A stretch of DNA of 64,000 nt from Primulina eburnea (Eukaryota; Streptophyta; Magnoliopsida; Lamiales; Gesneriaceae), in NCBI RefSeq assembly GCF_022965805.1, contig NW_027331313.1, forward strand, positions 1 to 64,000. The letters run 5' to 3'. Shown one piece after another: positions 26,106 through 61,896 of the stretch; the stretch's first letter is position 1; every line of letters starts with the position of its first letter. The translations under genes and the position numbers were made by a program. Under the pieces are notes generated by a model, which was not told where the DNA came from, made no database searches, and saw only the letters and a program-made list of their open reading frames with translations.

Positions 26106-26110
26106 TTAGT

Positions 26111-26304: not shown

Positions 26305-26308
26305 TTTA

Positions 26309-27674: not shown

Positions 27675-27679
27675 ACTTG

Positions 27680-29550: not shown

Positions 29551-29667
29551 AATTGTTGTTTTCTACTACTTGTAATCCTCAAAGGGATGGACAAACTGAA
29601 GTTGTCAATAGAACTTTGGGAACACTTTTGCGTGCTATTCTTAAAAAGAACTTGGATTGACATTTCT

Positions 29668-30024
29668 ATGGACTTTATTTTGGGGTTGCCTAGGACTAAG
29701 AAGGGGAGGGATTCTATTTTTGTTGTTGTGGATAGATTCTCTAAGATGGCACATTTTTTAGCTTGTCATAAAACCGATGATGCTTCAAACATTGCGGATA
29801 TGTTCTTTAGAGAAGTCGTTAGGTTGCATGGCGTGCCTAGGACTATTGTTTCTGATCGCGATGTTAAATTCTTTAGTTACTATTGGAAGACTTTATGGGC
29901 TAAACTTGGCACAAAATTGTTGTTTTCTACTACTTGTCATCCTCAAACGGATGGACAAACTGAAGTTGTCAATAGAACTTTGGGAACACTTTTGCGTGCT
30001 ATTTTTAAAAAGAACTTTAATTGA
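29668..30024 (+). pseudogene. Satellite monomer with all three integrase catalytic residues
   Basis: This is an open 118-codon frame from ATG. Asp is present in MDF, Asp in VSDRD and Glu in GQTEV, with 35 residues between the last two (DD35E). It ends FKKNFN and TGA at the monomer junction. It lacks the zinc-binding N-terminus and the C-terminal domain of a working integrase, so it is treated as a coding relic. Near the array edge, it may approximate the founder sequence. Confidence 0.75.
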
Positions 30025-30144
30025 CATTTCTATGGACTTTATTTTGGGGTTGCCTAGGACTAAGAAGGGGAGAGATTCTATTTTTGTTGTTGTGGATAGA
30101 TTCTCTAAGATGGCACATTTTATAGCTTTGTCATAAAACCGATG

Positions 30145-32693
30145 ATGCTTCAAACATTGCGGATTTGTTCTTTAGAGAAGTCGTTAGGTTGCATGGCATG
30201 CCTAGGACTATTGATTCTGGTCGCGATGTTAAATTTTTGAGTTACTTTTGGAAGATTTTAAGGGCTAAACTTGGCACAAAATTGTTGTTTTCTACTATTT
30301 GTCATCCTCAAACGGATGGACAAACTGAAGTTGTCAATAGAACTTTGGGAACACTTTTGCGTGCTATTCTTAAAAAGAACTTGAATTGACATTTCTATGG
30401 ACTTTATTTCGGGGTTGCCTAGGACTAAGAAGGGGAGGGATTCTATTTTTGTTGTTGTGGATAGATTCTCAAAGATGGCACATTTTATAGCTTGTCATAA
30501 AACCGATGATGCTTCATACAATGCGGATTTGTTCTTTAGAGAAGTCGTTAGGTTGCATGGCATGCCTAGGACTATTGTTTCTGGTCGCGATGTTAAATTC
30601 TTTAGTTACTTTTGGAAGACTTTATGGGCTAAACTTGGCACAAAATTGTTGTTTTCTACTACTTGTCATCCTCAAACGGATGGACAAACTGAAGTTGTCA
30701 ATAAAACTTTGGGAACACTTTTGCGTGCTATTCTTAAACAGAACTTGAATTGACATTTCTATGGACTTTATTTTGGGGTCGCCCAGGACTAAGAAGGGGA
30801 GGGATTCTATTTTTGTTGTTGTGGATAGATTCTCTAAGATGGCACATTTTATAGTTTGTCATAAAACCGATGATGCTTCAAACATTGCGGATTTGTTCTT
30901 TAGAGAAGTCGTTAGGTTGCATGGCATGCCTAGGACTATTGTTTCTGGTCGCGATGTTAAATTCTTTAGTTACTTTTGGAAGACTTTATGGGCTAAACTT
31001 GGCACAAAATTGTTGTTTTCTACTACTTGTCATCCTCAAACGGATGGACAAACTGAAGTTGTCAATAGAACTCTGGGAACACTTTTGCGAGCTTTTCTTA
31101 AAAAGAACTTGGATTGACATTTCTATGGACATTATTTTGGGGTTGCCGAGGACTAAGAAGGGGAGGGATTCTGTTTTTTTTTGCTGTGGAAAGATTCTCT
31201 AAGATGGCACATTTTATAGCTTGTCATAAAACCGATGATGCTTCAAACATTGCGGATATGTTCTTTAGAGAAGTCGTTAGGTTGCATGGCATGCCTAGGA
31301 CTATTGTTTCTGGTCGCGATGTTAAATTCTTGAGTTACTTTTGGAAGACTTTATGGGCTAAACTTGGCACAAAATTGTTGTTTTCTACTACTTGTCATCC
31401 CCAAACGGATAGACAAACTGAAGTTGTCAATAAAACTTTGGGAACACTTTTGCGTGCTATTCTTAAAAAGAACTTGGATTGACATTTCTATGGACTTTAT
31501 TTTGGGGTCGCCTTGGACTAAGAAGGGGAGGGATTCTATTTTTGTTGTTGTGGATAGATTCTCTAAGATGGCACATTTTATAGCTTGTCATAAAACCGAT
31601 GATGCTTCAAACATGGTGGATTTGTTCTTTAGAGAAGTCGTTAGGTTGCATGGAGTGCATAGGACTATTGTTTCTGGTCGCGATGTTCAATTCTTGATTT
31701 ACTTTTGGAAGACTTTATGGGCTAAACTTGGCACAAAATTGTTGTTTTCTACTACTTGTCATCCTCAAACAGATAGACAAACTGAAGTTGTCAATAAAAC
31801 TTTGGGAACAGATTTCTGTGCTATTCTTAAAAAGAACTTGGATTGACATTTCTATGGACTTTATTTTGGGGTGGCCTAGGACTAAGAAGGGGAGGGATTC
31901 TATTTTTGTTGTTGTGGATAGATTCTCTAAGATGGCACATTTTATAGCTTGTCCTAAAACCGATGATGCTTCAAACATTGCGGATTTGTTCTTTAGAGAA
32001 GTCGTTAGGTTGCATGGAGTGCCTAGGACTATTGTTTCTGGTCTCGATGTTAAATTCTTGAGTTACTTTTGGAAGACTTTATGGGCTAAACTTGGCACAA
32101 AATTGTTGTTTTCTACTACTTGACATCCTCAAACGGATGGACAAACTTAATTTGTCAATAGAACTTTGGGAACACCTTTGCGTGCTATTCTTAAAAAGAA
32201 CTTTGATTGACATTTCTATGAACTTTATTTTGGGGTCGCCTAAGACAAAGAAAGGGAGGGATTCTATTTTTGTTGTTGTGGATAGATTCTCTAAGATGGC
32301 ACATTTTATAGCTTGTCATAAAACCGATGATGTTTCAAACATTGCAGATTTGTTCTTTAGATAAGTCGTTAGGTTGCATGGCATGCCTAGTACTATTGTT
32401 TCTGCTCGCGATGTTAAATTCTTTAGTTACTATTGGAAGACTTTATGGGCTAAACTTGGCACAAAATTGTTGTTTTCTATTACTTGTCATCCTCAAACGG
32501 ATGGACAAACTTAAGTTGTCAATAGAACTTTGGGAACACTTTTGCGTGCTATTCTTAAAAAGAACTTGGATTGACATTTCTATGGACTATATTTTGGGGT
32601 TGCCTAGGACTAAGAAGGGGAGGGATTCTATTTTTGTTGTTGTGGATAGATTCTCTAAGATGGCACATTTTATAGCTTGTCATAAAACCGATG
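30145..32693 (+). repeat. Left satellite higher-order repeat, copy 1 (7 monomers)
   Basis: A block of about 2549 bp is repeated at about 32694-35243. Shared private variants in the same order include [32 protein letters not shown] with ASYNADLFF, a GSPRTKK unit with FIVCHK, a unit with a T run giving FFFAVERF, and GSPWTKK with NMVDLFF. Boundaries are approximate because the first and last units diverge gradually. Confidence 0.85.
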
Positions 32694-35243
32694 ATGCTTC
32701 AAACATTGCGGATTTGTTCTTTAGAGAAGTCGTTAGGTTGCATGGCATGCCTAGGACTATTGATTCTGGTCGCGATGTTAAATTTTTGAGTTACTTTTGG
32801 AAGATTTTAAGGGCTAAACTTGGCACAAAATTGTTGTTTTCTACTATTTGTCATCCTCAAACGGATGGACAAACTGAAGTTGTCAATAGAACTTTGGGAA
32901 CACTTTTGCGTGCTATTCTTAAAAAGAACTTGAATTGACATTTCTATGGACTTTATTTCGGGGTTGCCTAGGACTAAGAAGGGGAGGGATTCTATTTTTG
33001 TTGTTGTGGATAGATTCTCAAAGATGGCACATTTTATAGCTTGTCATAAAACCGATGATGCTTCATACAATGCGGATTTGTTCTTTAGAGAAGTCGTTAG
33101 GTTGCATGGCATGCCTAGGACTATTGTTTCTGGTCGCGATGTTAAATTCTTTAGTTACTTTTGGAAGACTTTATGGGCTAAACTTGGCACAAAATTGTTG
33201 TTTTCTACTTCTTGTCATCCTCAAACGGATGGACAAACTGAAGTTGTCAATAAAACTTTGGGAACACTTTTGCGTGCTATTCTTAAACAGAACTTGAATT
33301 GACATTTCTATGGACTTTATTTTGGGGTCGCCCAGGACTAAGAAGGGGAGGGATTCTATTTTTGTTGTTGTGGATAGATTCTCTAAGATGGCACATTTTA
33401 TAGTTTGTCATAAAACCGATGATGCTTCAAACATTGCGGATTTGTTCTTTAGAGAAGTCGTTAGGTTGCATGGCATGCCTAGGACTATTGTTTCTGGTCG
33501 CGATGTTAAATTCTTTAGTTACTTTTGGAAGACTTTATGGGCTAAACTTGGCACAAAATTGTTGTTTTCTACTACTTGTCATCCTCAAACGGATGGACAA
33601 ACTGAAGTTGTCAATAGAACTCTGGGAACACTTTTGCGAGCTTTTCTTAAAAAGAACTTGGATTGACATTTCTATGGACATTATTTTGGGGTTGCCGAGG
33701 ACTAAGAAGGGGAGGGATTCTGCTTTTTTTTGCTGTGGAAAGATTCTCTAAGATGGCACATTTTATAGCTTGTCATAAAACCGATGATGCTTCAAACATT
33801 GCGGATATGTTCTTTAGAGAAGTCGTTAGGTTGCATGGCATGCCTAGGATTATTGTTTCTGGTCGCGATGTTAAATTCTTGAGTTACTTTTGGAAGACTT
33901 TATGGGCTAAACTTGGCACAAAATTGTTGTTTTCTACTACTTGTCATCCCCAAACGGATAGACAAACTGAAGTTGTCAATAAAACTTTGGGAACACTTTT
34001 GCGTGCTATTCTTAAAAAGAACTTGGATTGACATTTCTATGGACTTTATTTTGGGGTCGCCTTGGACTAAGAAGGGGAGGGATTCTATTTTTGTTGTTGT
34101 GGATAGATTCTCTAAGATGGCACATTTTATAGCTTGTCATAAAACCGATGATGCTTCAAACATGGTGGATTTGTTCTTTAGAGAAGTCGTTAGGTTGCAT
34201 GGAGTGCATAGGACTATTGTTTCTGGTCGCGATGTTCAATTCTTGAGTTACTTTTGGAAGACTTTATGGGCTAAACTTGGCACAAAATTGTTGTTTTCTA
34301 CTACTTGTCATCCTCAAACGGATAGACAAACTGAAGTTGTCAATAAAACTTTGGGAACAGATTTCTGTGCTATTCTTAAAAAGAACTTGGATTGACATTT
34401 CTATGGACTTTATTTTGGGGTGGCCTAGGACTAAGAAGGGGAGGGATTCTATTTTTGTTGTTGTGGATAGATTCTCTAAGATGGCACATTTTATAGCTTG
34501 TCATAAAACCGATGATGCTTCAAACATTGCGGATTTGTTCTTTAGAGAAGTCGTTAGGTTGCTTGGAGTGCCTAGGACTATTGTTTCTGGTCGCGATGTT
34601 AAATTCTTGAGTTACTTTTGGAAGACTTTATGGGCTAAACTTGGCACAAAATTGTTGTTTTCTACTACTTGTCATCCTCAAACGGATGGACAAACTTAAT
34701 TTGTCAATAGAACTTTGGGAACACCTTTGCGTGCTATTCTTAAAAAGAACTTTGATTGACATTTCTATGAACTTTATTTTGGGGTCGCCTAAGACAAAGA
34801 AGGGGAGGGATTCTATTTTTGTTGTTGTGGATAGATTCTCTAAGATGGCACATTTTATAGCTTGTCATAAAACCGATGATGTTTCAAACATTGCAGATTT
34901 GTTCTTTAGATAAGTCGTTAGGTTGCATGGCATGCCTAGTACTATTGTTTCTGCTCGCGATGTTAAATTCTTTAGTTACTATTGGAAGACTTTATGGGCT
35001 AAACTTGGCACAAAATTGTTGTTTTCTACTACTTGTCATCCTCAAACGGATGGACAAACTGAAGTTGTCAATAGAACTTTGGGAACACTTTTGCGTGCTA
35101 TTCTTAAAAAGAACTTGGATTGACATTTCTATGGACTATATTTTGGGGTTGCCTAGGACTAAGAAGGGGAGGGATTCTATTTTTGTTGTTGTGGATAGAT
35201 TCTCTAAGATGGCACATTTTATAGCTTGTCATAAAACCGATGA
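32694..35243 (+). repeat. Left satellite higher-order repeat, copy 2 (7 monomers)
   Basis: Nearly identical to the preceding 2549 bp, with few substitutions (for example ACTACTTGT to ACTTCTTGT in one unit). After about 35243 the similarity stops: the next unit has IADMFF and SDRD where copy 1 is followed by IADLFF and DSGRD. Confidence 0.85.
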
Positions 35244-35959
35244 TGCTTCAAACATTGCGGATATGTTCTTTAGAGAAGTCGTTAGGTTGCATGGCGTGCC
35301 TAGGACTATTGTTTCTGATCGCGATGTTAAATTCTTGAGTTACTTTTGGAAGACTTTATGGGCTAAACTTGGCGCAAAATTGTTGCTTTCTACTACTTGT
35401 CATCCTCAAACGGATGGACAAACTTAAGTTGTCAATAGAACGTTTGGGAACACCTTTGCGTGCTATTCTTAAAAAGAACTTCGATTGACATTTCTATGAA
35501 CTTTATTTTGGGTTCGCCTAGGACAAAGAAGTGGAGGGATTCTATTTTTGTTGTTGTGGATAGATTCTCTAAGATGGCACATTTTATAGCTTGTCATAAA
35601 ACCGATGATGCTTCAAACATTGCAGATTTGTTCTTTAGAGAAGTCGTTAGGTTGCATGGCATTGCCTAGGACTATTGTTTCTGATCGCGATGTTAAATTC
35701 TTGAGTTACTTTTGGAAGACTTTATGGGCTAAACTTGGCACAAAATTGTTGTTTTCTACTACTTGTCATCCTCAAACGGATGGACAAACTGAAGTTGTCA
35801 ATAGAACTTTGGGAACACCTTTGCGTGCTATTCTTAAAAAGAACTTCGATTGACATTTCTATGACTTTATTTTGGGGTTGCCTAGACTAAGAAGGGGAGG
35901 GATTCTATTTTTGTTGTTGTGGATAGATTCTCTAAGATGGCACATTTTATAGCTTGTCA

Positions 35960-38020
35960 TAAAACCGATGATGCTTCAAACATTGCGGATTTGTTCTTTA
36001 GAGAAGTCGTTAGGTTGCATGGCATGCCTAGGACTATTGATTCTGGTCGCGATGTTAAATATTTGAGTTACTTTTGGAAGACTTTATGGGCTAAACTTGG
36101 CACAAAATTGTTGTTTTCTACTATTTGTCATCCTCAAACGGATGGACAAACTGAAGTTGTCAATAGAACTTTGGGAACACTTTTGCGTGCTATTCTTAAA
36201 AAGAACTTGAATTGACATTTCTATGGACTTTATTTCGGGGTTGCCTAGGACTAAGAAGGGGAGGGATTCTATTTTTGTTGTTGTGGATAGATTCTCAAAG
36301 ATGGCACATTTTATAGCTTGTCATAAAACCGATGATGCTTCATACAATGCGGATTTGTTCTTTAAAGAAGTCGTTAGGTTGCATGGCATGCCTAGGACTA
36401 TTGTTTCTGGTCGCGATGTTAAATTCTTTAGTTACTTTTGGAAGACTTTATGGGCTAAACTTGGCACAAAATTGTTGTTTTCTACTACTTGTCATCCTCA
36501 AACGGATGGACAAACTGAAGTTGTCAATAAAACTTTGGGAACACTTTTGCGTGCTATTCTTAAACAGAACTTGAATTGACATTTCTATGGACTTTATTTT
36601 GGGGTCGCCTAGGACTAAGAAGGGGAGGGATTCTATTTTTGTTGTTGTGGATAGATTCTCTAAGATGGCACATTTTATAGCTTGTCATAAAACCGATGAT
36701 GCTTCAAACATTGCGGATTTGTTCTTTAGAGAAGTCGTTAGGTTGCATGGCATGCCTAGGACTATTGTTTCTGGTCGCGATGTTAAATTCTTTAGTTACT
36801 TTTGGAAGACTTTATGGGCTAAACTTGGCACAAAATTGTTGTTTTCTACTACTTGTCATCCTTAAACGGATGGACAAACTGAAGTTGTCAATAGAACTCT
36901 GGGAACACTTTTGCGTAGCTATTCTTAAAAAGAACTTGGATTGACATTTCTATGGACATTATTTTGGGGTTGCCTAGGACTAAGAAGGGGAGGGATTCTG
37001 TTTTTTTTTGCTGTGGAAAGATTCTCTAAGATGGCACATTTTATAGCTTGTCATAAAACCGATGATGCTTCAAACATTGCGGATATGTTCTTTAGAGAAG
37101 TCGTTAGGTTGTATGGCATGCCTAGGACTATTGTTTCTGGTCGCGATGTTAAATTCTTGAGTTACTTTTGGAAGACTTTATGGGCTAAACTTGGCACAAA
37201 ATTGTTGTTTTCTACTACTTTTCATCCTCAAACGGATAGACAAACTGAAGTTGTCAATAAAACTTTGGGAACACTTTTGCGTGCTATTCTTAAAAAGAAC
37301 TTGGATTGACATTTCTATGGACTAAGAAGGGGAGGGATTCTATTTTTGTTGTTTTGGATAGATTCTCTAAGATGGCACATTTTATAGCTTGTCATAAAAC
37401 CGATGATGCTTCAAACATGGCGGATTTGTTCTTTAGAGAAGTCGTTAGGTTGCATGGAGTGCCTAGGACTATTGTTTCTGGTCGCGATGTTAAATTCTTG
37501 AGTTACTTTTGGAAGACTTTATGGGCTAAACTTGGCACAAAATTGTTGTTTTCTACTACTTGTCATCCTCAAACGGATAGACAAACTGAAGTTGTCAATA
37601 AAACTTTGGGAACACATTTCTGTGCTATTCTTAAAAAGAACTTGGATTGACATTTCTAGGGACTTTATTTTGGGGTGGCCTAGGACTAAGAAGGGGAGGG
37701 ATTCTATTTTTGTTGTTGTGGATAGATTCTCTAAGATGACACATTTTATAGCTTGTCATAAAACCGATGATGCTTCAAACATTGCGGATTTGTTCTTTAG
37801 AGAAGTCGTTAGGTTGCATGGAGTGCCTAGGACTATTGTTTCTGGTCGCGATGTTAAATTCTTGAGTTACTTTTGGAAGACTTTATGGGCTAAACTTGGC
37901 ACAAAATTGTTGTTTTCTACTACTTGTCATCCTCAAACGGATGGACAAACTTAAGTTGTCAATAGAACTTTGGGAACACCTTTGCGTGCTATTCTTAAAA
38001 AGAACTTCGATTGACATTTC
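35960..38020 (+). repeat. Left satellite higher-order repeat, partial copy 3
   Basis: The same ordered variants reappear ([27 protein letters not shown] at 36223, GSPRTKK at 36587, the T-run unit at about 37000, the GWPRTKK unit at about 37670). One unit near 37310 has a short deletion joining TFLW directly to TKKGRDS. About two unrelated monomers separate it from copy 2. End points are approximate. Confidence 0.72.
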
Positions 38021-39477
38021 TATGACTTTATTTTGGGGTCGCCTAGACTAAGAAGGGGAGGGATTCTATTTTTGTTGTTGTGGATAGATTCTCTAAGATG
38101 GCACATTTTATAGCTTGTCATAAAACCGATGATGCTTCAAACATTGCAGATTTGTTCTTTAGATAAGTCGTTAGGTTGCATGGCATGCCTAGTACTATTG
38201 TTTCTGCTCGCGATGTTAAATTCTTTAGTTACTATTGGAAGACTTTATGGGCTAAACTTGGCACAAAATTGTTGTTTTCTACTACTTGTCATCCTCAAAC
38301 GGATGGACAAACTGAAGTTGTCAATAGAACTTTGGGAACACTTTTGCGTGCTATTCTTAAAAAGAACTTGGATTGACATTTCTATGGACTTTATTTTGGG
38401 GTTGCCTAGGACTAAGAAGGGGAGGGATTCTATTTTTGTTGTTGTGGATAGATTCTCTAAGATGGCACATTTTATAGCTTGTCATAAAACCGATGATGCT
38501 TCAAACATGGTGGATTTGTTCTTTAGAGAAGTCGTTAGGTTGCATGGAGTGCCTAGGACTATTGTTTCTGGTCGCGATGTTAAATTCTTGAGTTACTTTT
38601 GGAAGACTTTATGGGCTAAACTTGGCACAAAATTGTTGTTTTCTACTACTTGTCATCCTCAAACGGATAGACAAACTGAAGTTGTCAATAAAACTTTGGG
38701 AACACATTTGCTGTGCTATTCTTAAAAAGAACTTGGATTGACATTTCTATGGACTTTATTTTGGGGTGGCCTAGGACTAAGAAGGGGAGGGATTCTATTT
38801 TTGTTGTTGTGGATAGATTCTCTAAGATGGCACATTTTATAGCTTGTCATAAAACCGATGATGCTTCAAACATTGCGGATTTGTTCTTTAGAGAAGTCGT
38901 TAGGTTGCATGGCAGTGCCTAGGACTATTGTTTCTGGTCGCGATGTTAAATTCTTGAGTTACTTTTGGAAGACTTTATGGGCTAAACTTGGCACAAAATT
39001 GTTGTTTTCTACTACTTGTCATCCTCAAACGGATGGACAAACTTAAGTTGTCAATAGAACTTTGGGAACACCTTTGCGTGCTATTCTTAAAAAGAACTTC
39101 GATTGACATTTCTATGAACTTTATTTTGGGGTCGCCTAAGACTAAGAAGGGGAGGGATTCTATTTTTGTTGTTGTGGATAGATTCTCTAAGATGGCACAT
39201 TTTATAGCTTGTCATAAAACCGATGATGCTTCAAACATTGCAGATTTGTTCTTTAGAGAAGTCGTTAGGTTGCATGGCATGCCTAGTACTATTGTTTCTG
39301 CTCGCGATGTTAAATTCTTTAGTTACTTTTGGAAGACTTTATGGGCTAAACTTGGCACAAAATTGTTGTTTTCTACTACTTGTCATCCTCAAACGGATGG
39401 ACAAACTGAAGTTGTCAATAGAACTTTGGGAACACTTTTGCGTGCTATTCTTAAAAAGAACTTGGATTGACATTTCT

Positions 39478-39834
39478 ATGGACTTTATTTTGGGGTTGCC
39501 TAGGACTAAGAAGGGGAGGGATTCTATTTTTGTTGTTGTGGATAGATTCTCTAAGATGGCACATTTTATAGCTTGTCATAAAACCGATGATGCTTCAAAC
39601 ATTGCGGATATGTTCTTTAGAGAAGTCGTTAGGTTGCATGGCATGCCTAGGACTATTGTTTCTGATCGCGATGTTAAATTCTTGAGTTACTTTTGGAAGA
39701 CTTTATGGGCTAAACTTGGCACAAAATTGTTGTTTTCTACTACTTGTCATCCTCAAACGGATGGACAAACTGAAGTTGTCAATAGAACTTTGGGAACACC
39801 TTTGCGTGCTATTCTTAAAAAGAACTTCGATTGA
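39478..39834 (+). pseudogene. Second left-block monomer with complete catalytic triad
   Basis: A 118-codon frame with [26 protein letters not shown] and [17 protein letters not shown], ending KKNFD and TGA. It is flanked by monomers whose catalytic Glu codon is a stop, so the intact triad is scattered rather than regional. Confidence 0.7.
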
Positions 39835-40515
39835 CATTTCTATGAAATTTATTTTGGGGTTGCCTAGGACTAAGAAGGGGAGGGATTCTATTTTTGTTGT
39901 TGTGGATAGATTCTCTAAGATGGCACATTTTATAGCTTGTCATAAAACCGATGATGCTTCAAACATTGCAGATTTGTTCTTTAGAGAAGTCGTTAGGTTG
40001 CATGGACTTGCCTAGGACTATTGTTTCTGATCGCGATGTTAAATTCTTGAGTTACTTTTGGAAGACTTTATGGGCTAAACTTGGCACAAAATTGTTGTTT
40101 TCTACTACTTGTCATTCTCAAACGGATGGACAAACTTAAGTTGTCAATAGAACTTTGGGAACACCTTTGCGTGCTATTCTTAAAAAGAACTTCGATTGAC
40201 ATTTCTATGAACTTTATTTTGGGGTCGCCTAAGACAAAGAAGGGGAGGGATTCTATTTTTGTTGTTGTGGATAGATTCTCTAAGATGGCACATTTTATAG
40301 CTTGTCATAAAGCCGATGATGCTTCAAACATTGCAGATTTGTTCTTTAGAGAAGTCGTTAGGTTGCATGGCATGCCTAGGACTATTGTTTCTGGTCGCGA
40401 TGTTAAATTCTTTAGTTACTATTGGAAGAATTTATGGGCTAAACTTTGCACAAAATTGTTGTTTTCTACTACTTGTCATCCTCAAACGGATGGACAAACT
40501 GAAGTTGTCAATAGA

Positions 40516-40520
40516 ACTTT
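40516..40520. other. Target-site duplication of Tekay copy 2 (ACTTT), left
   Basis: ACTTT before the LTR at 40521 is repeated at 48306-48310. Joining the flanks gives a continuous monomer reading ACTTTAGGAACAC, the form found at the same higher-order position at 53406 and 58503. Confidence 0.92.
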
Positions 40521-42112: not shown

Positions 42113-42117
42113 TTTAG

Positions 42118-42129
42118 TGGTATCAGAGC
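42118..42129 (+). other. Primer-binding site (initiator tRNA-Met), Tekay copy 2
   Basis: TGGTATCAGAGC, five bases after the LTR end, complementary to the initiator tRNA-Met 3' end. Confidence 0.94.
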
Positions 42130-42250
42130 GGTGTTTTCTTCGGACCAATGCATATGACTTCGTCTACTTTCAACTGTCCGGGTATGTTTTCTTTGCATCT
42201 ATCTATTGTTTTGTATTGATTGGTGTCTTGTGAGCATTGTAGAGTAGAGG

Positions 42251-46681: not shown

Positions 46682-46686
46682 CGTCA

Positions 46687-46721
46687 ATTTCGCGGACGAA
46701 ATTCCCTTAAGGGGGGGAGAT
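46687..46721 (+). promoter_or_regulatory. Tekay copy 2 inverted repeat and polypurine tract
   Basis: ATTTCG-CGGA-CGAAAT (46687-46702), six bases after the Gag-Pol stop, then TTAAGGGGGGGAGAT abutting the 3' LTR at 46722. Confidence 0.88.
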
Positions 46722-48305: not shown

Positions 48306-51300
48306 ACTTTAGGAACACTTTTGCGTGCTATTCTTAAAAAGAACTTGGATTGACATTTCTATTGACTTTATTTTGGGGTTGCCTAGGACTAAGAAGGGGA
48401 GGGATTCTATTTTTGTTGTTGTGGATAGATTCTCTAAGATGGCACATTTTATAGCTTGTCATAAAACCGATGATGCTTCAAACATTGCGGATATGTTCTT
48501 TAGAGAAGTCGTTAGGTTGCATGGCGTGCCCAGGACTATTGTTTCTGATCGCGATGTTAAATTCTTGAGTTACTTTTGGAAGACTTTATGGGCTAAACTT
48601 GGCACAAAATTGTTGTTTTCTACTACTTGTCATCCTCAAACGGATGGACAAACTGAAGTTGTCAATAAAACTTTGGGAAGACTTTTGCGTGCTATTCTTA
48701 AAAAGAACTTGGATTGACATTTCTATGGACTTTATTTTGGGGTGAGTGCCTAGGACTAAGAAGAGGAGGGATTCTATTTTTATTGTTGTGGATAGATTCT
48801 CTAAGATGGCACATTTTATAGCTTGTCATAAAACCGATGATGCTTCAAACATTGCAGGATTTGTTCTTTAGAGAAGTCGTTAGGTTGCATGGCATGCCTA
48901 GGACTATTGTTTCTGGTCGCGATGTTAAATTCTTGAGTTACTATTGGAAGACTTTATGGGCTAAACTTGGCACAAAATTGTTGTTTTCTACTACTTGTCA
49001 TCCTCAAACGGATGGACAAACTGAAGTTGTCAATAGAACTTTGGGAACACTTTTGCGTGCTATTCTTAAAAAGAACTTGGATTGACATTTCTATGGACTT
49101 TATTTCGGGGTTGCCTAGGACTAAGAAGGGGAGGGATTCTATTTTTGTTGTTGTGGATAGATTCTCAAAGATGGCACATTTTATAGCTTGTCATAAAACC
49201 GATGATGCTTCATACAATGCGGATTTGTTCATTAGAGAAGTCGTTAGGTTGCATGGCATGCCTAGGACTATTGTTTCTGGTCGCGATGTTAAATTCTTTA
49301 GTTACTTTTGGAAGACTTTATGGGCTAAACTTGGCACAAAATTGTTGTTTTCTACTACTTGTCATCCTCAAACGGATGGACAAACTGAAGTTGTCAATAA
49401 AACTTTGGGAACACTTTTGCGTGCTATTCTTAAAAAGAACTTGGATTGACATTTCTATGGACTTTATTTTGGGGTCGCCTAGGACTAAGAAGGGGAGGGA
49501 TTCTATTTTTGTTGTTGTGGATAGATTCTCTAAGATGGCACATTTTATAGTTGTCATAAAACCGATGATGCTTCAAACATGGCGGATTTGTTCTTTAGAG
49601 AAGTCGTTAGGTTGCATGGCAGTGCCTAGGACTATTGTTTCTGGTCGCGATGTTAAATTCTTGAGTTACTTTTGGAAGACTTTATGGGCTAAACTTGGCA
49701 CAAAATTGTTGTTTTCTACTACTTGTCATCCTCAAACGGATAGACAAACTGAAGTTGTCAATAAAACTTTGGGAACACATTTCTGTGCTATTCTTAAAAA
49801 GAACTTGGATTGACATTTCTATGGACTTTATTTTGGGGTGGCCTAGGACTAAGAAGGGGAGGGATTCTATTTTTCTTGTTGTGGATAGATTCTCTAAGAT
49901 GGCACATTTTATAGCTTGTCATAAAACCGATGATGCTTCAAACATGCGGATTTGTTCTTTAGAGAAGTCGTTAGGTTGCATGGAGTGCCTAGGACTATTG
50001 TTTCTGGTCGCGATGTTAAATTCTTGAGTTACTTTTGGAAGACTTTATGGGCTAAACTTGGCACAAAATTGTTGTTTTCTACTACTTGTCATCCTCAAAC
50101 CGATGGACAAACTTAATTTGTCAATAGAACTTTGGGAACACCTTTGCGTGCTATTCTTAAAAAGAACTTCGATTGAGATTTCTATGAACTTTATTTTGGG
50201 GTCGCGTAAGAATAAGAAGGGGAGGGATTCTATTTTTGTTGTTGTGGATAGATTCTCTAAGATGGCACATTTTATAGCTTGTCATAAAACCGATGATGCT
50301 TCAAACATTGCGGATTTGTTCTTTAGAGAAGTCGTTAGGTTGCATGGCAGTGCCTAGGACTATTGTTTCTGGTCGCGATGTTAAGTTCTTGAGTTACTTT
50401 TGGAAGACTTTATGGGCTAAACTTGGCACAAAATTGTTGTTTTCTACTACTTGTCATCCTCAAACGGATAGGACAAACTGAAGTTGTCAATAGAACTTTG
50501 GGAACACATTTGCTGTGCTATTCTTAAAAAGAACTTGGATTGACATTTCTATGGACTTTATTTTGGGGTGGCCTAGGACTAAGAAGGGGAGGGATTCTAT
50601 TTTTGTTGTTGTGGATAGATTCTCTAAGATGGCACATTTTATAGCTTGTCATAAAACCGATGATGCTTCAAACATTGCAGATTTGTTCTTTAGAGAAGTC
50701 GTTAGGTTGCATGGAGTGCCTAGGACTATTGTTTCTGGTCGCGATGTTAAATTCTTGAGTTACTTTTGGAAGACTTTATGGGCTAAACTTGGCACAAAAT
50801 TGTTGTTTTCTACTACTTGTCATCCTCAAACGGATGGACAAACTTAATTTGTCAATAGAACTTTGGGAACACCTTTGCGTGCTATTCTTAAAAAGAACTT
50901 CGATTGACATTTCTATGAACTTTATTTTGGGGTCGCCTAAGACAAAGAAGGGGAGGGATTCTATTTTTGTTGTTGTGGATAGATTCTCTAAGATGGCACA
51001 TTTTATAGCTTGTCATAAAACCGATGATGTTTCAAACATTGCAGATTTGTTCTTTAGATAAGTCGTTATGTTGCATGGCATGCCTAGTACTATTGTTTCT
51101 GCTCGCGATGTTAAATTCTTTAGTTACTATTGGAAGACTTTATGGGCTAAACTTGGCACAAAATTGTTGTTTTTTACTACTTGTCATCCTCAAACGGATG
51201 GACAAACTGAAGTTGTCAATAGAACTTTGGGAACACTTTTGCGTGCTATTCTTAAAAAGAACTTGGATTGACATTTCTATGGACTTTATTTTGGGGTTGC

Positions 51301-53405
51301 CTAGGACTAAGAAGCGGAGGGATTCTATTTTTGTTGTTGTGGATAGATTCTCTAAGATGGCACATTTTATAGCTTTTCATAAAACCGATGATGCTTCAAA
51401 CATTGCGGATATGTTCTTTAGAGAAGTCGTTAGGTTGCATGGCGTGCCTAGGACTATTGTTTCTGATCGCGATGTTAAATTCTTGAGTTACTTTTGGAAG
51501 ACTTTATGGGCTAAACTTGGCACAAAATTGTAGTTTTCTACTACTTGTCATCCTCAAACGGATGGACAAACTTAAGTTGTCAATAGAAGTTTGGGAACAC
51601 CTTTGCGTGCTATTCTTAAAAAGAACTTCGATTGACATTTCAATGAACTTTATTTTGGGGTCGCCTAAGACAAAGAAGGGGAGGGATTCTATTTTTGTTG
51701 TTGTGGATTGATTCTCTAAGATGGCACATTTTATAGCTTGTCATAAAACCGATGATGCTTCAAACATTGCGGATTTGTTCTTTAGAGAAGTCGTTAGGTT
51801 GCATGGCTTGCCTAGGACTATTGTTTCTGATCGCGATATTAAATTCTTGAGTTACTTTTGGAAGACTTTATGGGCTAAACTTGGCACAAAATTGTTGTTT
51901 TCTACTACTTGTCATTCTCAAACGGATGGACAAACTTAAGTTGTCAATAGAACTTTGGGAACACCTTTGCGTGCTATTCTTAAAAAGAACTTCGATTGAC
52001 ATTTCTATGAACTTTATTTTGGGGTCGCCTAAGACAAAGAAGGGGAGGGATTCTATTTTTGTTGTTGTGGATAGATTCTCTAAGATGGCACATTTTATAG
52101 CTTGTCATAAAACCGATGATGCTTCAAACATTGCGGATTTGTTCTTTAGAGAAGTCGTTAGGTTGCATGGCTTGCCTAGGACTATTGTTTCTGATCGCGA
52201 TGTTAAATTCTTGAGTTACTTTTGGAAGACTTTATGGGCTAAACTTAGCACAAAATTGTAGTTTTCTACTACTTGTCATCCTCAAACGGATGGACAAACT
52301 TAAGTTGTCAATAGAACTTTAGGAACACTTTTGCGTGCTATTCTTAAAAAGAACTTGGATTGACATTTCTATGGACTTTATTTTGGGGTTGCCTAGGACT
52401 AAGAAGGGGAGGGATTCTATTTTTGTTGTTGTGGATAGATTCTCTAAGATGCACATTTTATAGCTTGTCATAAAACCGATGATGCTTCAAACATTGCGGA
52501 TATGTTCTTTAGAGAAGTCGTTAGGTTGCATGGCGTGCCTAGGACTATTGTTTCTGATCGCGATGTTAAATTCTTGAGTTACTTTTGGAAGACTTTATGG
52601 GCTAAACTTGGCACAAAATTGTAGTTTTCTACTACTTGTCATCCTCAAACGGATGGACAAACTTAAGTTGTCAATAGAAGTTTGGGAACACCTTTGCGTG
52701 CTATTCTTAAAAAGAACTTCGATTGACATTTCTATGAACTTTATTTTGGGGTCGCCTAAGACAAGAAGGGGAGGGATTCTATTTTTGTTGTTGTGGATAG
52801 ATTCTCTAAGATGGCACATTTTATAGCTTGTCATAAAACCGATGATGCTTCAAACATTGCGGATTTGTTCTTTAGAGAAGTCGTTAGGTTGCATGGCTTG
52901 CCTAGGACTATTGTTTCTAATCGCGATGTTAAATTCTTGAGTTACTTTTGGAAAACTTTATGGGCTAAACTTGGCACAAAATTGTTGTTTTCTACTACTT
53001 GTCATTCTCAAACGGATGGACAAACTTAAGTTGTCAATAGAACTTTGGGAACACCTTTGCGTGCTATTCTTAAAAAGAACTTCGATAGACATTTCTATGA
53101 ACTTTATTTTGGGGTCGCCTAAGACAAAGAAGGGGAGGGATTCTATTTTTATTGTTGTGGATAGATTCTCTAAGATTGCACATTTTATAGCTTGTCATAA
53201 AGCCGATGATGCTTCAAACATTGCAGATTTGTTCTTTAGAGAAGTCGTTAGGTTGCATGGCATGCCTAGGACTATTGTTTCTGGTCGCGATGTTAAATTC
53301 TTTAGTTACTATTGGAAGACTTTATGGGCTAAACTTGGCACAAAATTGTTGTTTTCTACTACTTGTCATCCTCAAACGGATGGACAAACTGAAGTTGTCA
53401 ATAGA
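48306..53405 (+). repeat. Right satellite higher-order repeat, copy 1 (14 monomers)
   Basis: A 5100-bp block starting at ACTTTAGGAACAC, with the same start at 53406. The fixed order of private variants includes IDFILG, LFIREVV, NMADLFF with a one-base shift, [16 protein letters not shown] with NMRICS, an IEISMNF unit (GATTGAGATTTC at about 50172), [10 protein letters not shown] followed by stop, and two TTGTAG units. Confidence 0.87.
48325..48717 (+). pseudogene. Right-block monomer with complete catalytic triad
   Basis: This frame holds [26 protein letters not shown] and [17 protein letters not shown], then KKNLD and TGA. The MDF methionine is replaced by Ile (ATTGAC), so the frame has no ATG at the usual place, but the three acidic residues remain. 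It is the first monomer after the Tekay insertion. Confidence 0.65.
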
Positions 53406-56400
53406 ACTTTAGGAACACTTTTGCGTGCTATTCTTAAAAAGAACTTGGATTGACATTTCTATTGACTTTATTTTGGGGTTTCCTAGGACTAAGAAGGGGA
53501 GGGATTCTATTTTTGTTGTTGTGGATAGATTCTCTAAGATGGCACATTTTATAGCTTGTCATAAAACCGATGATGCTTCAAACATTGCGGATTTGTTCTT
53601 TAGAGAAGTCGTTAGGTTGCATGGCAGTGCCTAGGACTATTGTTTCTGATCGCGATGTTAAATTCTTGAGTTACTTTTGGAAGACTTTATGGGCTAAACT
53701 TGGCACAAAATTGTTGTTTTCTACTACTTGTCATCCTCAAACGGATGGACAAACTGAAGTTGTCAATAGAACTTTGGGAACACTTTTGCGTGCTATTCTT
53801 AAAAAGAACTTGGATTGACATTTCTATGGACTTTATTTTGGGGTTGCCTAGGACTAAGAAGGGGAGGGATTCTATTTTTGTTGTTGTGGATAGATTCTCT
53901 AAGATGGCACATTTTATAGCTTGTCATAAAACCGATGATGCTTCAAACATTGCGGATTTGTTCTTTAGAGAAGTCGTTAGGTTGCATGGCATGCCTAGGA
54001 CTATTGTTTCTGGTCGCGATGTTAAATTCTTGAGTTACTATTGGAAGACTTTATGGGCTAAACTTGGCACAAAATTGTTGTTTTCTACTACTTGTCATCC
54101 TCAAACGGATGGACAAACTGAAGTTGTCAATAGAACTTTGGGAACACTTTTGCGTGCTATTCTTAAAAAGAACTTGGATTGACATTTCTATGGACTTTAT
54201 TTTGGGGTTGCCTAGGACTAAGAAGGGGAGGGATTCTATTTTTGTTGTTGTGGATAGATTCTCTAAGATGGCACATTTTATAGCTTGTCATAAAACCGAT
54301 GATGCTTCAAACATTGCGGATTTGTTCATTAGAGAAGTCGTTAGGTTGCATGGCATGCCTAGGACTATTGTTTCTGGTCGCGATGTTAAATTCTTTAGTT
54401 ACTTTTGGAAGACTTTATGGGCTAAACTTGGCAAAAAATTGTTGTTTTCTACTACTTGTCATCCTCAAACGGATGGACAAACTGAAGTTGTCAATAGAAC
54501 TTTGGGAACACTTTTGCGTGCTATTCTTAAAAAGAACTTGGATTGACATTTCTATGGACTTTATTTTGGGGTCGCCTAGGACTAAGAAGGGGAGGGATTC
54601 TATTTTTGTTGTTGTGGATAGATTCTCTAAGATGGCACATTTTATAGCTTGTCATAAAACCGATGATGCTTCAAACATGGCGGATTTGTTCTTTAGAGAA
54701 GTCGTTAGGTTGCATGGCAGTGCCTAGGACTGTTGTTTCTGGTCGCGATGTTAAATTCTTGAGTTACTTTTGGAAGACTTTATGGGCTAAACTTGGCACA
54801 AAATTGTTGTTTTCTACTACTTGTCATCCTCAAACGGATAGACAAACTGAAGTTGTCAATAGAACTTTGGGAACACATTTCTGTGCTATTCTTAAAAAGA
54901 ACTTGGATTGACATTTCTATGGACTTTATTTTGGGGTGGCCTAGGACTAAGAAGGGGAGGGATTCTATTTTTCTTGTTGTGGATAGATTCTCTAAGATGG
55001 CACATTTTATAGCTTGTCATAAAACCGATGATGCTTCAAACATGCGGATTTGTTCTTTAGAGAAGTCGTTAGGTTGCATGGAGTGCCTAGGACTATTGTT
55101 TCTGGTCGCGATGTTAAATTCTTGAGTTACTTTTGGAAGACTTTATGGGCTAAACTTGGCACAAAATTGTTGTTTTCTACTACTTGTCATCCTCAAACCG
55201 ATGGACAAACTTAATTTGTCAATAGAACTTTGGGAACACCTTTGCGTGCTATTCTTAAAAAGAACTTCGATTGAGATTTCTATGAACTTTATTTTGGGGT
55301 CGCGTAAGAAAAGAAGGGGAGGGATTCTATTTTTGTTGTTGTGGATAGATTCTCTAAGATGGCACATTTTATAGCTTGTCATAAAACCGATGATGCTTCA
55401 AACATGGCGGATTTGTTCTTTAGAGAAGTCGTTAGGTTGCATGGCAGTGCCTAGGACTATTGTTTTGGTCGCGATGTTAAGTTCTTGAGTTACTTTTGGA
55501 AGACTTTATGGGCTAAACTTGGCACAAAATTGTTGTTTTCTACTACTTGTCATCCTCAAACGGATAGACAAACTGAAGTTGTCAATAAAACTTTGGGAAC
55601 ACATTTCTGTGCTATTCTTAAAAAGAACTTGGATTGACATTTCTATGGACTTTATTTTGGGGTGGCCTAGGACTAAGAAGGGGAGGGATTCTATTTTTGT
55701 TGTTGTGGATAGATTCTCTAAGTTGGCACATTTTATAGCTTGTCATAAAACCGATGATGCTTCAAACATTGCAGATTTGTTCTTTAGAGAAGTCGTTAGG
55801 TTGCATGGAGTGCCTAGGACTATTGTTTCTGGTCGCGATGTTAAATTCTTGAGTTACTTTTGGAAGACTTTATGGGCTAAACTTGGCACAAAATTGTTGT
55901 TTTCTACTACTTGTCATCCTCAAACGGATGGACAAACTTAATTTGTCAATAGAACTTTGGGAACACCTTTGCGTGCTATTCTTAAAAAGAACTTCGATTG
56001 ACATTTCTATGAACTTTATTTTGGGGTCGCCTAAGACAAAGAAGGGGAGGGATTCTATTTTTGTTGTTGTGGATAGATTCTCTAAGATGGCACATTTTAT
56101 AGCTTGTCATAAAACCGATGATGTTTCAAACATTGCAGATTTGTTCTTTAGATAAGTCGTTATGTTGCATGGCATGCCTAGTACTATTGTTTCTGCTCGC
56201 GATGTTAAATTCTTTAGTTACTATTGGAAGACTTTATGGGCTAAACTTGGCACAAAATTGTTGTTTTTACTACTTGTCATCCTCAAACGGATGGACAAAC
56301 TGAAGTTGTCAATAGAACTTTGGGAACACTTTTGCGTGCTATTCTTAAAAAGAACTTGGATTGACATTTCTATGGACTTTATTTTGGGGTTGCCTAGGAC

Positions 56401-58502
56401 TAAGAAGCGGAGGGATTCTATTTTTGTTGTTGTGGATAGATTCTCTAAGATGGCACATTTTATAGCTTTTCATAAAACCGATGATGCTTCAAACATTGCG
56501 GATATGTTCTTTAGAGAAGTCGTTAGGTTGCATGGCGTGCCTAGGACTATTGTTTCTGATCGCGATGTTAAATTCTTGAGTTACTTTTGGAAGACTTTAT
56601 GGGCTAAACTTGGCACAAAATTGTAGTTTTCTACTACTTGTCATCCTCAAACGGATGGACAAACTTAAGTTGTCAATAGAAGTTTGGGAACACCTTTGCG
56701 TGCTATTCTTAAAAAGAACTTCGATTGACATTTCAATGAACTTTATTTTTGGGGTCGCCTAAGACAAAGAAGGGGAGGGATTCTATTTTTGTTGTTGTGG
56801 ATTGATTCTCTAAGATGGCACATTTTATAGCTTGTCATAAAACCGATGATGCTTCAAACATTGCGGATTTGTTCTTTAGAGAAGTCGTTAGGTTGCATGG
56901 CTTGCCTAGGACTATTGTTTCTGATCGCGATATTAAATTCTTGAGTTACTTTTGGAAGACTTTATGGGCTAAACTTGGCACAAAATTGTTGTTTTCTACT
57001 ACTTGTCATTCTCAAACGGATGGACAAACTTAAGTTGTCAATAGAACTTTGGGAACACCTTTGCGTGCTATTCTTAAAAAGAACTTCGATTGACATTTCT
57101 ATGAACTTTATTTTGGGGTCGCCTAAGACAAAGAAGGGGAGGGATTCTATTTTTGTTGTTGTGGATAGATTCTCTAAGATGGCACATTTTATAGCTTGTC
57201 ATAAAACCGATGATGCTTCAAACATTGCGGATTTGTTCTTTAGAGAAGTCGTTAGGTTGCATGGCTTGCCTAGGACTATTGTTTCTGATCGCGATGTTAA
57301 ATTCTTGAGTTACTTTTGGAAGACTTTATGGGCTAAACTTAGCACAAAATTGTAGTTTTCTACTACTTGTCATCCTCAAACGGATGGACAAACTTAAGTT
57401 GTCAATAGAACTTTAGGAACACTTTTGCGTGCTATTCTTAAAAAGAACTTGGATTGACATTTCTATGGACTTTATTTTGGGGTTGCCTAGGATTAAGAAG
57501 GGGAGGGATTCTATTTTTGTTGTTGTGGATAGATTCTCTAAGATGCCACATTTTATAGCTTGTCATAAAACCGATGATGCTTCAAACATTGCGGATATGT
57601 TCTTTAGAGAAGTCGTTAGGTTGCATGGCGTGCCTAGGACTATTGTTTCTGATCGCGATGTTAAATTCTTGAGTTACTTTTGGAAGACTTTATGGGCTAA
57701 ACTTGGCACAAAATTGTAGTTTTCTACTACTTGTCATCCTCAAACGGATGGACAAACTTAAGTTGTCAATAGAAGTTTGGGAACACCTTTGCGTGCTATT
57801 CTTAAAAAGAACTTCGATTGACATTTCTATGAACTTTATTTTTGGGGTCGCCTAAGACAAAGAAGGGGAGGGATTCTATTTTTGTTGTTGTGGATAGATT
57901 CTCTAAGATGGCACATTTTATAGCTTGTCATAAAACCGATGATGCTTCAAACATTGCGGATTTGTTCTTTAGAGAAGTCGTTTGGTTGCATGGCTTGCCT
58001 AGGACTATTGTTTCTAATCGCGATGTTAAATTCTTGAGTTACTTTTGGAAAACTTTATGGGCTAAACTTGGCACAAAAATGTTGTTTTCTACTACTTGTC
58101 ATTCTCAAACGGATGGACAAACTTAAGTTGTCAATAGAACTTTGGGAACACCTTTGCGTGCTATTCTTAAAAAGAACTTCGATAGACATTTCTATGAACT
58201 TTATTTTGGGGTCGCCTAAGACAAAGAAGGGGAGGGATTCTATTTTTATTGTTGTGGATAGATTCTCTAAGATTTGACATTTTATAGCTTGTCATAAAGC
58301 CGATGATGCTTCAAACATTGCAGATTTGTTCTTTAGAGAAGTCGTTAGGTTGCATGGCATGCCTAGGACTATTGTTTCTGGTCGCGATGTTAAATTCTTT
58401 AGTTACTATTGGAAGAATTTATGGGCTAAACTTGGCACAAAATTGTTGTTTTCTACTACTTGTCATCCTCAAACGGATGGACAAACTGAAGTTGTTAATA
58501 GA
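53406..58502 (+). repeat. Right satellite higher-order repeat, copy 2 (14 monomers)
   Basis: A 5097-bp block with the same ordered variants as copy 1, for example the NMRICS unit (55020 versus 49930), the GATTGAG unit (about 55270), the ATTTTTGGGG unit and repeated TTGTAG units. It differs from copy 1 by scattered substitutions and one-base indels, including single-base losses at about 55312 and 56266. A new higher-order copy starts at 58503. Confidence 0.87.
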
Positions 58503-59686
58503 ACTTTAGGAACACTTTTGCGTGCTATTCTTAAAAAGAACTTGGATTGACATTTCTATTGACTTTATTTTGGGGTTTCCTAGGACTAAGAAGGGGAGGG
58601 ATTCTATTTTTGTTGTTGTGGATAGATTCTCTAAGATGGCACATTTTATAGCTTGTCATAAAACCGATGATGCTTCAAACATTGCGGATATGTTCTTTAG
58701 AGAAGTCGTTAGGTTGCATGACGTGCCCAGGACTATTGTTTCTGATCGCGATGTTAAATTCTTGAGTTACTTTTGGAAGACTTTATGGGCTAAACTTGGC
58801 ACAAAATTGTTGTTTTCTACTACTTGTCATCCTCAAACGGATGGACAAACTGAAGTTGTCAATAAAACTTTGGGAACACTTTTGCGTGCTATTCTTAAAA
58901 AGAACTTGGATTGACATTTCTATGGACTTTATTTTGGGTGGAGTGGCCTAGGACTAAGAAGGGGAGGGATTCTATTTTTGTTGTTGTGGATAGATTCTCT
59001 AAGATGGCACATTTTATAGCCTGTCATAAAACCGATGATGCTTCAAACATTGCAGATTTGTTCTTTAGAGAAGTCGTTAGGTTGCATGGCATGCCTAGGA
59101 CTATTGTTTCTGGTCGCGATGTTAAATTCTTTAGTTACTATTGGAAGACTTTATGGGCTAAACTTGGCAAAAAATTGTTGTTTTCTACTACTTGTCATCC
59201 TCAAACGGATGGACAAACTGAAGTTGTCAATAAAACTTTGGGAACACTTTTGCGTGCTATTCTTAAAAAGAACTTGGATTGACATTTCTACGGACTTTAT
59301 TTCGGGGTTGCCTAGGACTAAGAAGGGGAGGGATTCTATTTTTGTTGTTGTGGATAGATTCTCAAAGATGGCACATTTTATAGCTTGTCGTAAAACCGAT
59401 GATGCTTCATACAATGCGGATTTGTTCATTAGAGAAGTCGTTAGGTTGCATGGCATGCCTAGGACTATTGTTTCTGATCGCGATGTTAAATTCTTTAGTT
59501 ACTTTTGGAAGACTTTATGGGCTAAACTTGGCAAAAAATTGTTGTTTTCTACTACTTGTCATCCACAAACGGATGGACAAACTGAAGTTGTCAATAAAAC
59601 TTTGGGAACACTTTTGCGTGCTATTCTTAAAAAGAACTAGGATTGACATTTCTATGGACTTTATTTTGGGGTCGCCTAGGACTAAG
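58503..59686 (+). repeat. Right satellite higher-order repeat, partial copy 3
   Basis: It starts again at ACTTTAGGAACAC with the IDFILGF unit (triad intact: SDRD at about 58742, GAA at about 58851), a variant unit with an inserted GTGGAGTGG at about 58938 and the [13 protein letters not shown] unit at about 59408, matching the start of copy 1. It is cut by the copia insertion at 59687. Confidence 0.82.
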
Positions 59687-61884: not shown

Positions 61885-61896
61885 TGGTATCAGAGC
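61885..61896 (+). other. Primer-binding site (initiator tRNA-Met), copia copy 2
   Basis: TGGTATCAGAGC, two bases (AG) after the LTR end. Confidence 0.9.

What the first reader, a model, noticed from the sequence alone, without database searches (positions are those of the whole stretch)
29551..59686. A satellite built from the catalytic core of a retrotransposon integrase
About 61 head-to-tail monomers of 364 bp, interrupted only by one Tekay element, each encode just the integrase core (first Asp through just past the catalytic Glu) and nothing else of pol. The parent looks like a CRM/Galadriel-type chromovirus, a type often centromeric. Satellites arising from LTRs or leaders are known; one cut this neatly around a protein domain is unusual and may mark a centromeric or pericentromeric array.
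Basis: partly seen in the sequence, partly recalled or inferred. Interest (0 to 1): 0.88.

Follow-up and report, generated by a model that had tools for sequence, protein, structure and literature searches.

The report
Satellite made from retrotransposon integrase fragment
An abundant tandem-repeat DNA in what appears to be the plant Primulina eburnea is a 364-base piece of a retrotransposon's integrase gene copied tens of thousands of times into large blocks inside the chromosomes, so the birth of a possible centromere repeat can be read to the base.

Summary
Two runs of a 364-bp head-to-tail repeat (29551-40519 and 48306-59686; 60 complete monomers, mean pairwise identity 95.9%) encode the integrase catalytic core and nothing else of pol. 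Contig lengths point to Primulina eburnea (Gesneriaceae). The 30-base monomer junction occurs 33,292 times exactly in the 812-Mb assembly (reversed control 0), roughly 12 Mb at 364 bp each. It was seen on 12 of 18 chromosomes: in one region on seven, in a main region plus distant arrays on three, and in several regions of unclear rank on C5 and C8. The parent family is in the same genome. The monomer is the 364 bp between two CTT trinucleotides of its integrase gene (25 of 26 parent copies have both), and 74 sampled monomers form one clade beside two parent copies. One short-homology joining followed by amplification is the best explanation. The fit to the protein domain looks accidental: the unit shifts frame, variation shows no coding constraint (pN/pS 1.16), and most monomers have lost a catalytic residue. 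The parent has CRM-type LTR features. A centromeric role is plausible but untested. Retrotransposon-derived satellites are known; an integrase-core one did not appear in the searches made.

The parts
29551..40519 (+). Satellite array, left part, 364-bp monomers, integrase sense on + strand
48306..59686 (+). Satellite array, right part, same orientation; contains a 14-monomer segmental duplication (several monomers starting at 49807-51993 are identical or nearly so to those starting at 54905-57087)
53812..54175 (+). One representative 364-bp monomer starting just after the CTT junction (GGATTGAC...AAGAACTT)
53820..54179 (+). Stop-free 120-aa integrase-core frame of one monomer (rve PF00665); the second catalytic Asp is Gly here
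40520..48305 (+). Tekay-type element inserted in the array; 1,476-aa gag-pol ORF 42251-46681; LTRs 40520-42112 and 46721-48305, 99.4% identical; TSD ACTTT
59687..64000 (+). First part of a copia-type element inserted in the array (continues to C783:69153; LTRs 99.86% over 2,195 bp; TSD CTAAG); the array resumes beyond it
29162..29550 (+). Short element whose end forms the left array edge; the same junction is found in contig C300

Best explanation
This is a non-coding satellite DNA, probably born once, from the integrase gene of a CRM-type Ty3/gypsy chromovirus of Primulina. A 364-bp piece bounded by two copies of CTT in one element copy was joined to itself by short-homology repair, most simply as a small extrachromosomal circle or a tandem duplication (inferred). 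It was then multiplied and homogenised by unequal exchange, rolling-circle reinsertion or gene conversion (inferred), and came to lie on many chromosomes as large internal, probably pericentromeric or centromeric, blocks into which many LTR elements, some of them relatives of its own parent, have inserted (insertions shown). It works as DNA, not protein. Its likely role, if any, is that of a (peri)centromeric repeat (inferred). Shown here: exact breakpoints, parent family, abundance, one clade in the sample, lack of coding constraint, differing array homogeneity, later TE insertions. Inferred: circle or duplication intermediate, mode of spread, centromere role.
For: Tandem array and monomer statistics. 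33,292 exact junction 30-mers in the assembly, reversed control 0. Parent family found by a downstream-flank search (150 of 21,074 candidates scored). Of 28 parent loci taken, 26 gave the core; all 26 have ...GAACCTT at the 5' border and 25 of 26 end ...ACTT before the 3' flank AAA(G/A)A, while the satellite junction reads AAGAACTTGGATTGAC: CTT shared. 74 monomers sampled from 19 sources form one clade (FastTree support 0.72, midpoint root) with no parent inside; nearest are L070 (mean 91.4%) and L063 (89.6%); the other 24 parents are 81-86%. No coding constraint: pN/pS 1.16 against the observed spectrum. Catalytic codons degraded: Asp2 is GAT in 54 of 278, Glu is a stop in 68 of 278. Homogeneity differs between arrays: L014 on unplaced contig C720 99.6% (20 monomers), L019 on C1 99.3% (3 monomers), window 95.9%. 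Parent-family LTR ends abut satellite at L004 and in 2 of the 8 parent loci L059-L066 (L061, L062), and a similar LTR end at L088. On 12 chromosomes 41 of 82 parent hits lie within 5 Mb of a satellite block, 19.1 expected if uniform.
Against: Clade support is modest (0.72) and the tree is of short DNA. A 3-bp microhomology can occur by chance; the breakpoints are shown, not the joining mechanism. Arrays or junction hits also lie away from the main region (C1 14.04; C2 25.2; C3 40.6, 42.4, 43.8; C5 23.4 and 40.2 of 41.8 Mb; C8 25.4), so localisation is not one site per chromosome, or the scaffolding is imperfect. Six of 18 chromosomes were not seen in the listed hits. At the 32 array edges of the loci not chosen for parent elements only one (L004) is of the parent family by eye; the rest are other LTR elements, one N gap, one contig-end artefact. 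The parent family is also dispersed along arms, and LTR elements in general may crowd pericentromeres, so one search is weak.
Confidence: 0.87

Rival explanations
1. The arrays are the functional, CENH3-bound centromere repeat of P. eburnea, having replaced an older repeat; the parental CRM-type element supplied centromere DNA.
For: Interrupted blocks of 0.8-2.4 Mb (C2 17.2-19.7, C3 33.7-34.6, C4 13.5-14.3, C12 22.2-23.6 Mb) at internal positions; a very homogeneous sample on C1 (L019, three monomers) and on C12 at 22.8 Mb; some CRM-type relatives inserted in arrays; no other tandem family above 1 kb in loci L001-L058 (samples biased to the satellite).
Against: No CENH3, FISH or Hi-C data; arrays elsewhere, one about 1.6 Mb from a chromosome end; on C5 and C8 no single main block; C16 rests on one hit; 6 of 18 chromosomes not seen; satellites can be pericentromeric without kinetochore function.
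Confidence: 0.4
2. The array is a multi-copy integrase gene or a domesticated integrase-domain protein kept for function.
For: The rve core is readable in one frame; 24 of 60 window monomers have a stop-free frame over the unit.
Against: The unit shifts frame by one base per copy, pN/pS is 1.16, and catalytic codons are changed in many copies.
Confidence: 0.02
3. Assembly artefact: a few monomers expanded by the assembler.
For: The contig ends in an inverted, indel-rich copy at C783:71454-72475; much of the satellite lies on unplaced contigs.
Against: Distinct monomers (mean identity 95.9%); insertions with target duplications; the same locus on contig C300 with its own array; 33,292 junctions across the assembly.
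Confidence: 0.03
4. The satellite arose by several independent excisions from different parent copies because the CTT-CTT pair is recombination-prone.
For: 25 of 26 parents carry both CTT borders.
Against: The 74 sampled monomers fall in one clade next to only two parents, with support 0.72.
Confidence: 0.08

Closest known systems
CRM1TR and CRM4TR of maize (PMC3648361; abstract and Discussion seen)
   Same: Tandem repeats wholly derived from CRM-clade chromoviruses, in or near centromeres, with later retroelement insertions; illegitimate recombination at short repeats proposed.
   Different: Those monomers come from the LTR-UTR region at few loci; here it is an internal coding fragment of pol, present on at least 12 chromosomes in tens of thousands of copies.
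Grass pea FabTR satellites from Ogre 3'UTR tandem repeats (PMC7004042; passages seen)
   Same: Retrotransposon-born satellites that expand mainly in primary constrictions.
   Different: They began as tandem repeats already inside the element downstream of gag-pol; here the parent copies examined carry the segment once and the source is integrase coding DNA.
CficCl-61-40 satellite of Chenopodium from the tnp2 domain of a CACTA element (PMC7320549; abstract seen)
   Same: Most abundant satellite of its genus, born from a conserved transposition-protein domain.
   Different: DNA transposon, about 40-bp source fragment; here 364 bp of an LTR-element integrase core.
gag-derived repeats of rye and wheat (E3900; 250-bp Cereba gag-like repeat) as told in PMC9659126 and PMC3648361 (passages and Discussion seen)
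   Same: Coding part of an LTR element turned into a tandem repeat.
   Different: gag, not the integrase catalytic core.

Membership tests
Satellite DNA derived from a transposable element | Long head-to-tail arrays of similar monomers | tested here: met
Satellite DNA derived from a transposable element | High copy number beyond the element's own copies | tested here: met
   33,292 exact junction 30-mers; the 26 parent cores aligned run on into integrase sequence instead of the junction
Satellite DNA derived from a transposable element | Identifiable parent element in the same genome with monomer-flanking sequence | tested here: met
   26 of 28 loci L059-L086 (not L064, L081) with flanking integrase sequence on both sides
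CRM clade of chromoviruses (parent) | LTR ends TGATG ... T/CATCA (stated for most elements in PMC3059260) | tested here: met
   L004 LTR 2954-3846 TGATG...CATCA; element ends at or within two bases of CATCA or TATCA in 7 of the 8 loci L059-L066 (L063 has no end there)
[quoted passage not shown]
   The ORF runs past a TGATG that matches the LTR start in L059; no CR-motif sequence was on hand to compare
CRM clade of chromoviruses (parent) | No type II chromodomain (groups A and B) | tested here: inconclusive
   Pfam lists no chromodomain in 240 aa of the parent's integrase C-terminus, but it lists none in the window's Tekay-type polyprotein either (E up to 0.001), so the test has no power
CRM clade of chromoviruses (parent) | Falls in the CRM clade by RT or integrase phylogeny | not tested
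   No named reference elements were available
CRM1TR/CRM4TR type | Monomer from LTR and UTR | tested here: not met
   Monomer lies wholly in the integrase coding region
Centromeric satellite | One block at the same structural place on every chromosome | tested here: inconclusive
   Seen on 12 of 18 chromosomes; one region on 7 (C4, C6, C10, C12, C13, C15, C16), main region plus distant hits on C1, C2, C3, unclear on C5 and C8 (capped lists)
Centromeric satellite | Bound by CENH3 nucleosomes | not testable with these tools
   Needs ChIP-seq or CUT&Tag
Working integrase gene array | Purifying selection and intact DD35E residues | tested here: not met
   pN/pS 1.16; Asp2 GAT in 54 of 278, Glu stop in 68 of 278

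The most novel reading that the evidence does not exclude
A centromere-invading retrotransposon gave its host a new functional centromere satellite: one 364-bp piece of its integrase gene was amplified to more than 30,000 copies, took over the kinetochore sites of most Primulina eburnea chromosomes, and is now diverging into chromosome-specific forms (201-bp on C2 and C13, about 330-bp on C4) while members of the parent family still insert into it.
Probability: 0.35. Interest if true: 0.78.

Novelty: new member of a known kind. Interest (0 to 1): 0.62.

Why it matters
Where centromere satellites come from is an old question, because most are too diverged for their source to be recognised. Here likely parent elements still exist in the same genome, the breakpoints are known to the base, arrays can be ranked by homogeneity, and derived shorter forms have appeared. 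That makes the steps from coding element to abundant satellite directly testable across Primulina and Gesneriaceae. It also adds the integrase catalytic core to the retrotransposon parts known to seed an abundant satellite (LTR, UTR and gag in the papers seen), and shows that readability as a protein domain need not mean protein function.

Tried and rejected
A protein role was rejected (frame shift per copy, pN/pS 1.16, lost catalytic codons). A longer pol unit was rejected: modal length 364 in 185 of 278 monomers. The 82% identity inverted copy at the end of contig C783 was first taken for a divergent subfamily; it is indel-rich and lies inverted to the array, and looks like an unpolished read end. 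A search for predicted proteins elsewhere that carry the frame-shifted junction peptide found none, which says little because satellites are rarely annotated. The integrase homologue search found ordinary integrases up to 90% identical (120 of 7,320 listed; 14 aligned, 18 printed), mostly from unnamed sources. Chromosome samples outside the blocks: 0 of 16 single 1.5-kb samples at 20 Mb of C2-C11 and C13-C18, and 1 of 4 samples on C1, were satellite. Literature: seven topical searches showed no integrase-core satellite in the titles and abstract openings listed; three searches naming Primulina or Gesneriaceae listed no satellite or centromere-DNA paper for them. The library is open-licence papers only. 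A 2025 review (PMC12628747, passages) already says satellites can arise from gag or pol domains. L064 and L081 gave no core alignment and were dropped before the 26-copy count.

A first distance test (34 of 68 parent hits within 5 Mb on nine chromosomes, 15.1 expected) was redone on twelve chromosomes (41 of 82, 19.1 expected; counting every array seen, 49 of 82, 26.4 expected). The other 68 of the 150 hits lie on chromosomes without a seen block or on unplaced contigs and were left out; positions were typed by hand from the listings and the null is uniform.

Full report
What is there. The window holds two runs of a 364-bp tandem repeat, 29551-40519 and 48306-59686, all in one orientation. I found 62 junction motifs and 60 complete monomers, 341-368 bp long, with mean pairwise identity 95.9% (range 91.5-100%) and peaks of similarity at lags 7 and 14; several monomers at 49.8-52.3 kb are identical or nearly so to those 14 units further on. 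Translated in the right frame a monomer is the integrase core and nothing else (Pfam rve, E 2.5e-8, profile 9-102 of 102). Its edges are not array ends: the Tekay-type element in the middle (name recalled) has TSD ACTTT and 99.4% identical LTRs; at 59687 a copia-type element begins (TSD CTAAG, LTRs 99.86% over 2,195 bp), and the array resumes beyond it at C783:69154; the left edge is another element end.

Whose genome. The window is contig C783 of an 812-Mb assembly with 1,224 contigs. I infer Primulina eburnea (Gesneriaceae) and take C1-C18 as the chromosomes.

How much and where. The 30-base sequence across the monomer junction occurs 15,738 + 17,554 = 33,292 times exactly; the reversed control occurs 0 times. 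At 364 bp each that is about 12.1 Mb, 1.5% of the assembly. Diverged copies are missed and some variants are shorter, so this is an order of size. Listings stop at 100 places, so I used rare variants of the junction to see the spread: 36 hits, all listed; 91 hits, all listed; 352 hits, 100 listed. With they show satellite on 12 of 18 chromosomes: near C1 31.6, C2 17.2-19.7, C3 33.7-34.6, C4 13.5-14.3, C5 29.4-30.4, C6 7.0-7.6, C8 13.0-13.1, C10 25.4, C12 22.2-23.6, C13 12.3-12.7, C15 8.1-8.4 and C16 24.5 Mb (C16 rests on one hit, C10 and C13 on two or three). Against a single site per chromosome, further hits lie at C1 14.04, C2 25.2, C3 40.6, 42.4 and 43.8, C5 23.4 and 40.2, and C8 25.4 Mb; those at C1 14.04 and C3 40.6 were fetched and are tandem, and for C5 and C8 the listed hits do not single out a main block. 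C7, C9, C11, C14, C17 and C18 did not appear among the listed hits, which is not evidence of absence. Of 20 short samples (19 on C12 from 20.0 to 25.0 Mb, one on C1) 3 were satellite (C12 22.7, 22.8 and 23.4 Mb; the first only 78-83% identical, with indels). Of 20 samples only C1 31.62 Mb was satellite.

The parent. Searching the own genome with an 81-aa stretch that follows the core in a homologous integrase gave 150 scored matches of 21,074 candidates, on all 18 chromosomes, with open frames up to 1,663 aa. I compared 28 of these loci; 26 gave an alignable core. In all 26 the sequence before the core reads ...GAACCTT|GGGT, in 25 of 26 the core ends ...ACTT|AAA(G/A)A (L063 ends ACTA), and the stretch between is 363-365 bp. 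The satellite junction is AAGAACTT|GGATTGAC. So the monomer is the parent's DNA from just after one CTT to the end of the next, a 3-bp microhomology. In a tree of 74 monomers from 19 sources and the 26 parents, the monomers form one clade (support 0.72, midpoint root) containing no parent; the closest parents are L070 on C10 (mean 91.4%) and L063 on C12 (89.6%), the rest 81-86%. This is best read as a single birth.

What the parent is. The element at L004 has an 893-bp LTR TGATG...CATCA, and 7 of the 8 loci L059-L066 show element ends at or within two bases of CATCA or TATCA. Neumann et al. (PMC3059260, passages) give TGATG and T/CATCA as LTR ends of most CRM-clade elements and say that group A coding regions run into the 3' LTR, as seen here. 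I could not test the CR motif or a phylogeny, and a Pfam test for a chromodomain had no power because it also listed none in the Tekay-type element. CRM-type is therefore likely, not proven. Members of the family lie directly against satellite at L004, L061 and L062, and a similar LTR end at L088. But of the 32 array edges in loci not chosen for parent elements only L004 is of this family by eye; most others are ends of other LTR elements. On 12 chromosomes 41 of 82 parent hits fall within 5 Mb of a satellite block against 19.1 expected under uniform spread; LTR elements in general may do the same.

Why it is DNA, not a gene. 364 is not a multiple of three, so each copy shifts frame. Across 60 window monomers 24 synonymous and 102 non-synonymous variant alleles were seen, 27.6 and 100.8 expected from the mutation spectrum (pN/pS 1.16). 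In 278 monomers from the window and 18 loci the second catalytic Asp is GAT in 54 and GGT in 210; the catalytic Glu is GAA in 205 and a stop in 68; the first Asp is GAC in 240 (which residues are catalytic is by DD35E spacing and recall).

History. Arrays differ in homogeneity: L014 on unplaced C720 99.6% (20 monomers) and L019 on C1 99.3% (three monomers) against 95.9% in the window, so the window is an older or less homogenised part. A four-monomer period of 1,457 bp is seen in L011 and L015. The samples on C2 and C13 carry a 201-bp form lacking about 160 bp of the unit, and that on C4 a roughly 330-bp form. With a rate of 1.3e-8 per site per year (recalled, from grasses) the Tekay-type insertion would be about 0.2 million years old. 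Contig C300 carries the same locus at 98-99% identity but without the window's 16425-29161 stretch, so C783 and C300 are two haplotypes or a recent duplicate; this also shows the array in a second contig.

Mechanism. Shown: origin from integrase DNA, exact breakpoints, one clade in the sample, abundance, differing homogeneity, later insertions. Inferred: that a double-strand break or replication error was healed through CTT, giving a tandem duplication or small circle, and that unequal exchange, gene conversion or circle reinsertion did the rest. A (peri)centromeric place is likely; a kinetochore role is open.

What is known. Maize CRM1TR and CRM4TR come from LTR and UTR of CRM elements (PMC3648361, abstract and Discussion); grass pea satellites from 3'UTR repeats of Ogre (PMC7004042, passages); Chenopodium's main satellite from a transposase domain (PMC7320549, abstract); rye and wheat repeats from gag (PMC9659126, passages; PMC3648361); and a 2025 review says gag or pol domains can be sources (PMC12628747, passages). 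Seven searches listed no satellite said to be made of the integrase core, and three none for Primulina or Gesneriaceae, in open-licence papers, judged from titles and abstract openings. I therefore call it a new member of a known kind, an unusually clean and abundant one.

Noticed in passing
16425-29161: A 12.7-kb chain with three gag ORFs and several LTR copies of one gag-only LTR element, with one 5-bp target duplication (GCCCG) around the whole chain, absent from the matching locus on contig C300: one compound insertion, differing between the two contigs.
   Followed up: partly
L089 (C2:18601550-18602350) and L092 (C13:12328250-12329050): A 201-bp second-generation satellite made by losing about 160 bp of the 364-bp unit, in the samples from C2 and C13; the C4 sample (L090) has a roughly 330-bp form.
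   Followed up: partly
L001:7454-8475 (C783:71454-72475): The contig ends in an inverted, indel-rich copy of the array, probably an unpolished read end.
   Followed up: partly
L004:1-3846 (C12:23.49 Mb): A CRM-type element whose integrase core is missing by deletion sits right beside satellite made of that core.
   Followed up: no
74-16282: A second Tekay-type element on the minus strand (outer LTR copies 99.5% identical), with a copia-type element (LTRs 6219-8290 and 13347-15420, 99.1%) nested in it.
   Followed up: no
C1:14037050-14037850, C5:40.18 Mb, C8:25.42 Mb: Satellite far from the other blocks of these chromosomes; old centromere sites, transfers or scaffolding errors.
   Followed up: partly
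29162-29550 and 16283-16424: A short element with a tRNA-like internal sequence (by eye) split by the compound LTR insertion, possibly a SINE.
   Followed up: no
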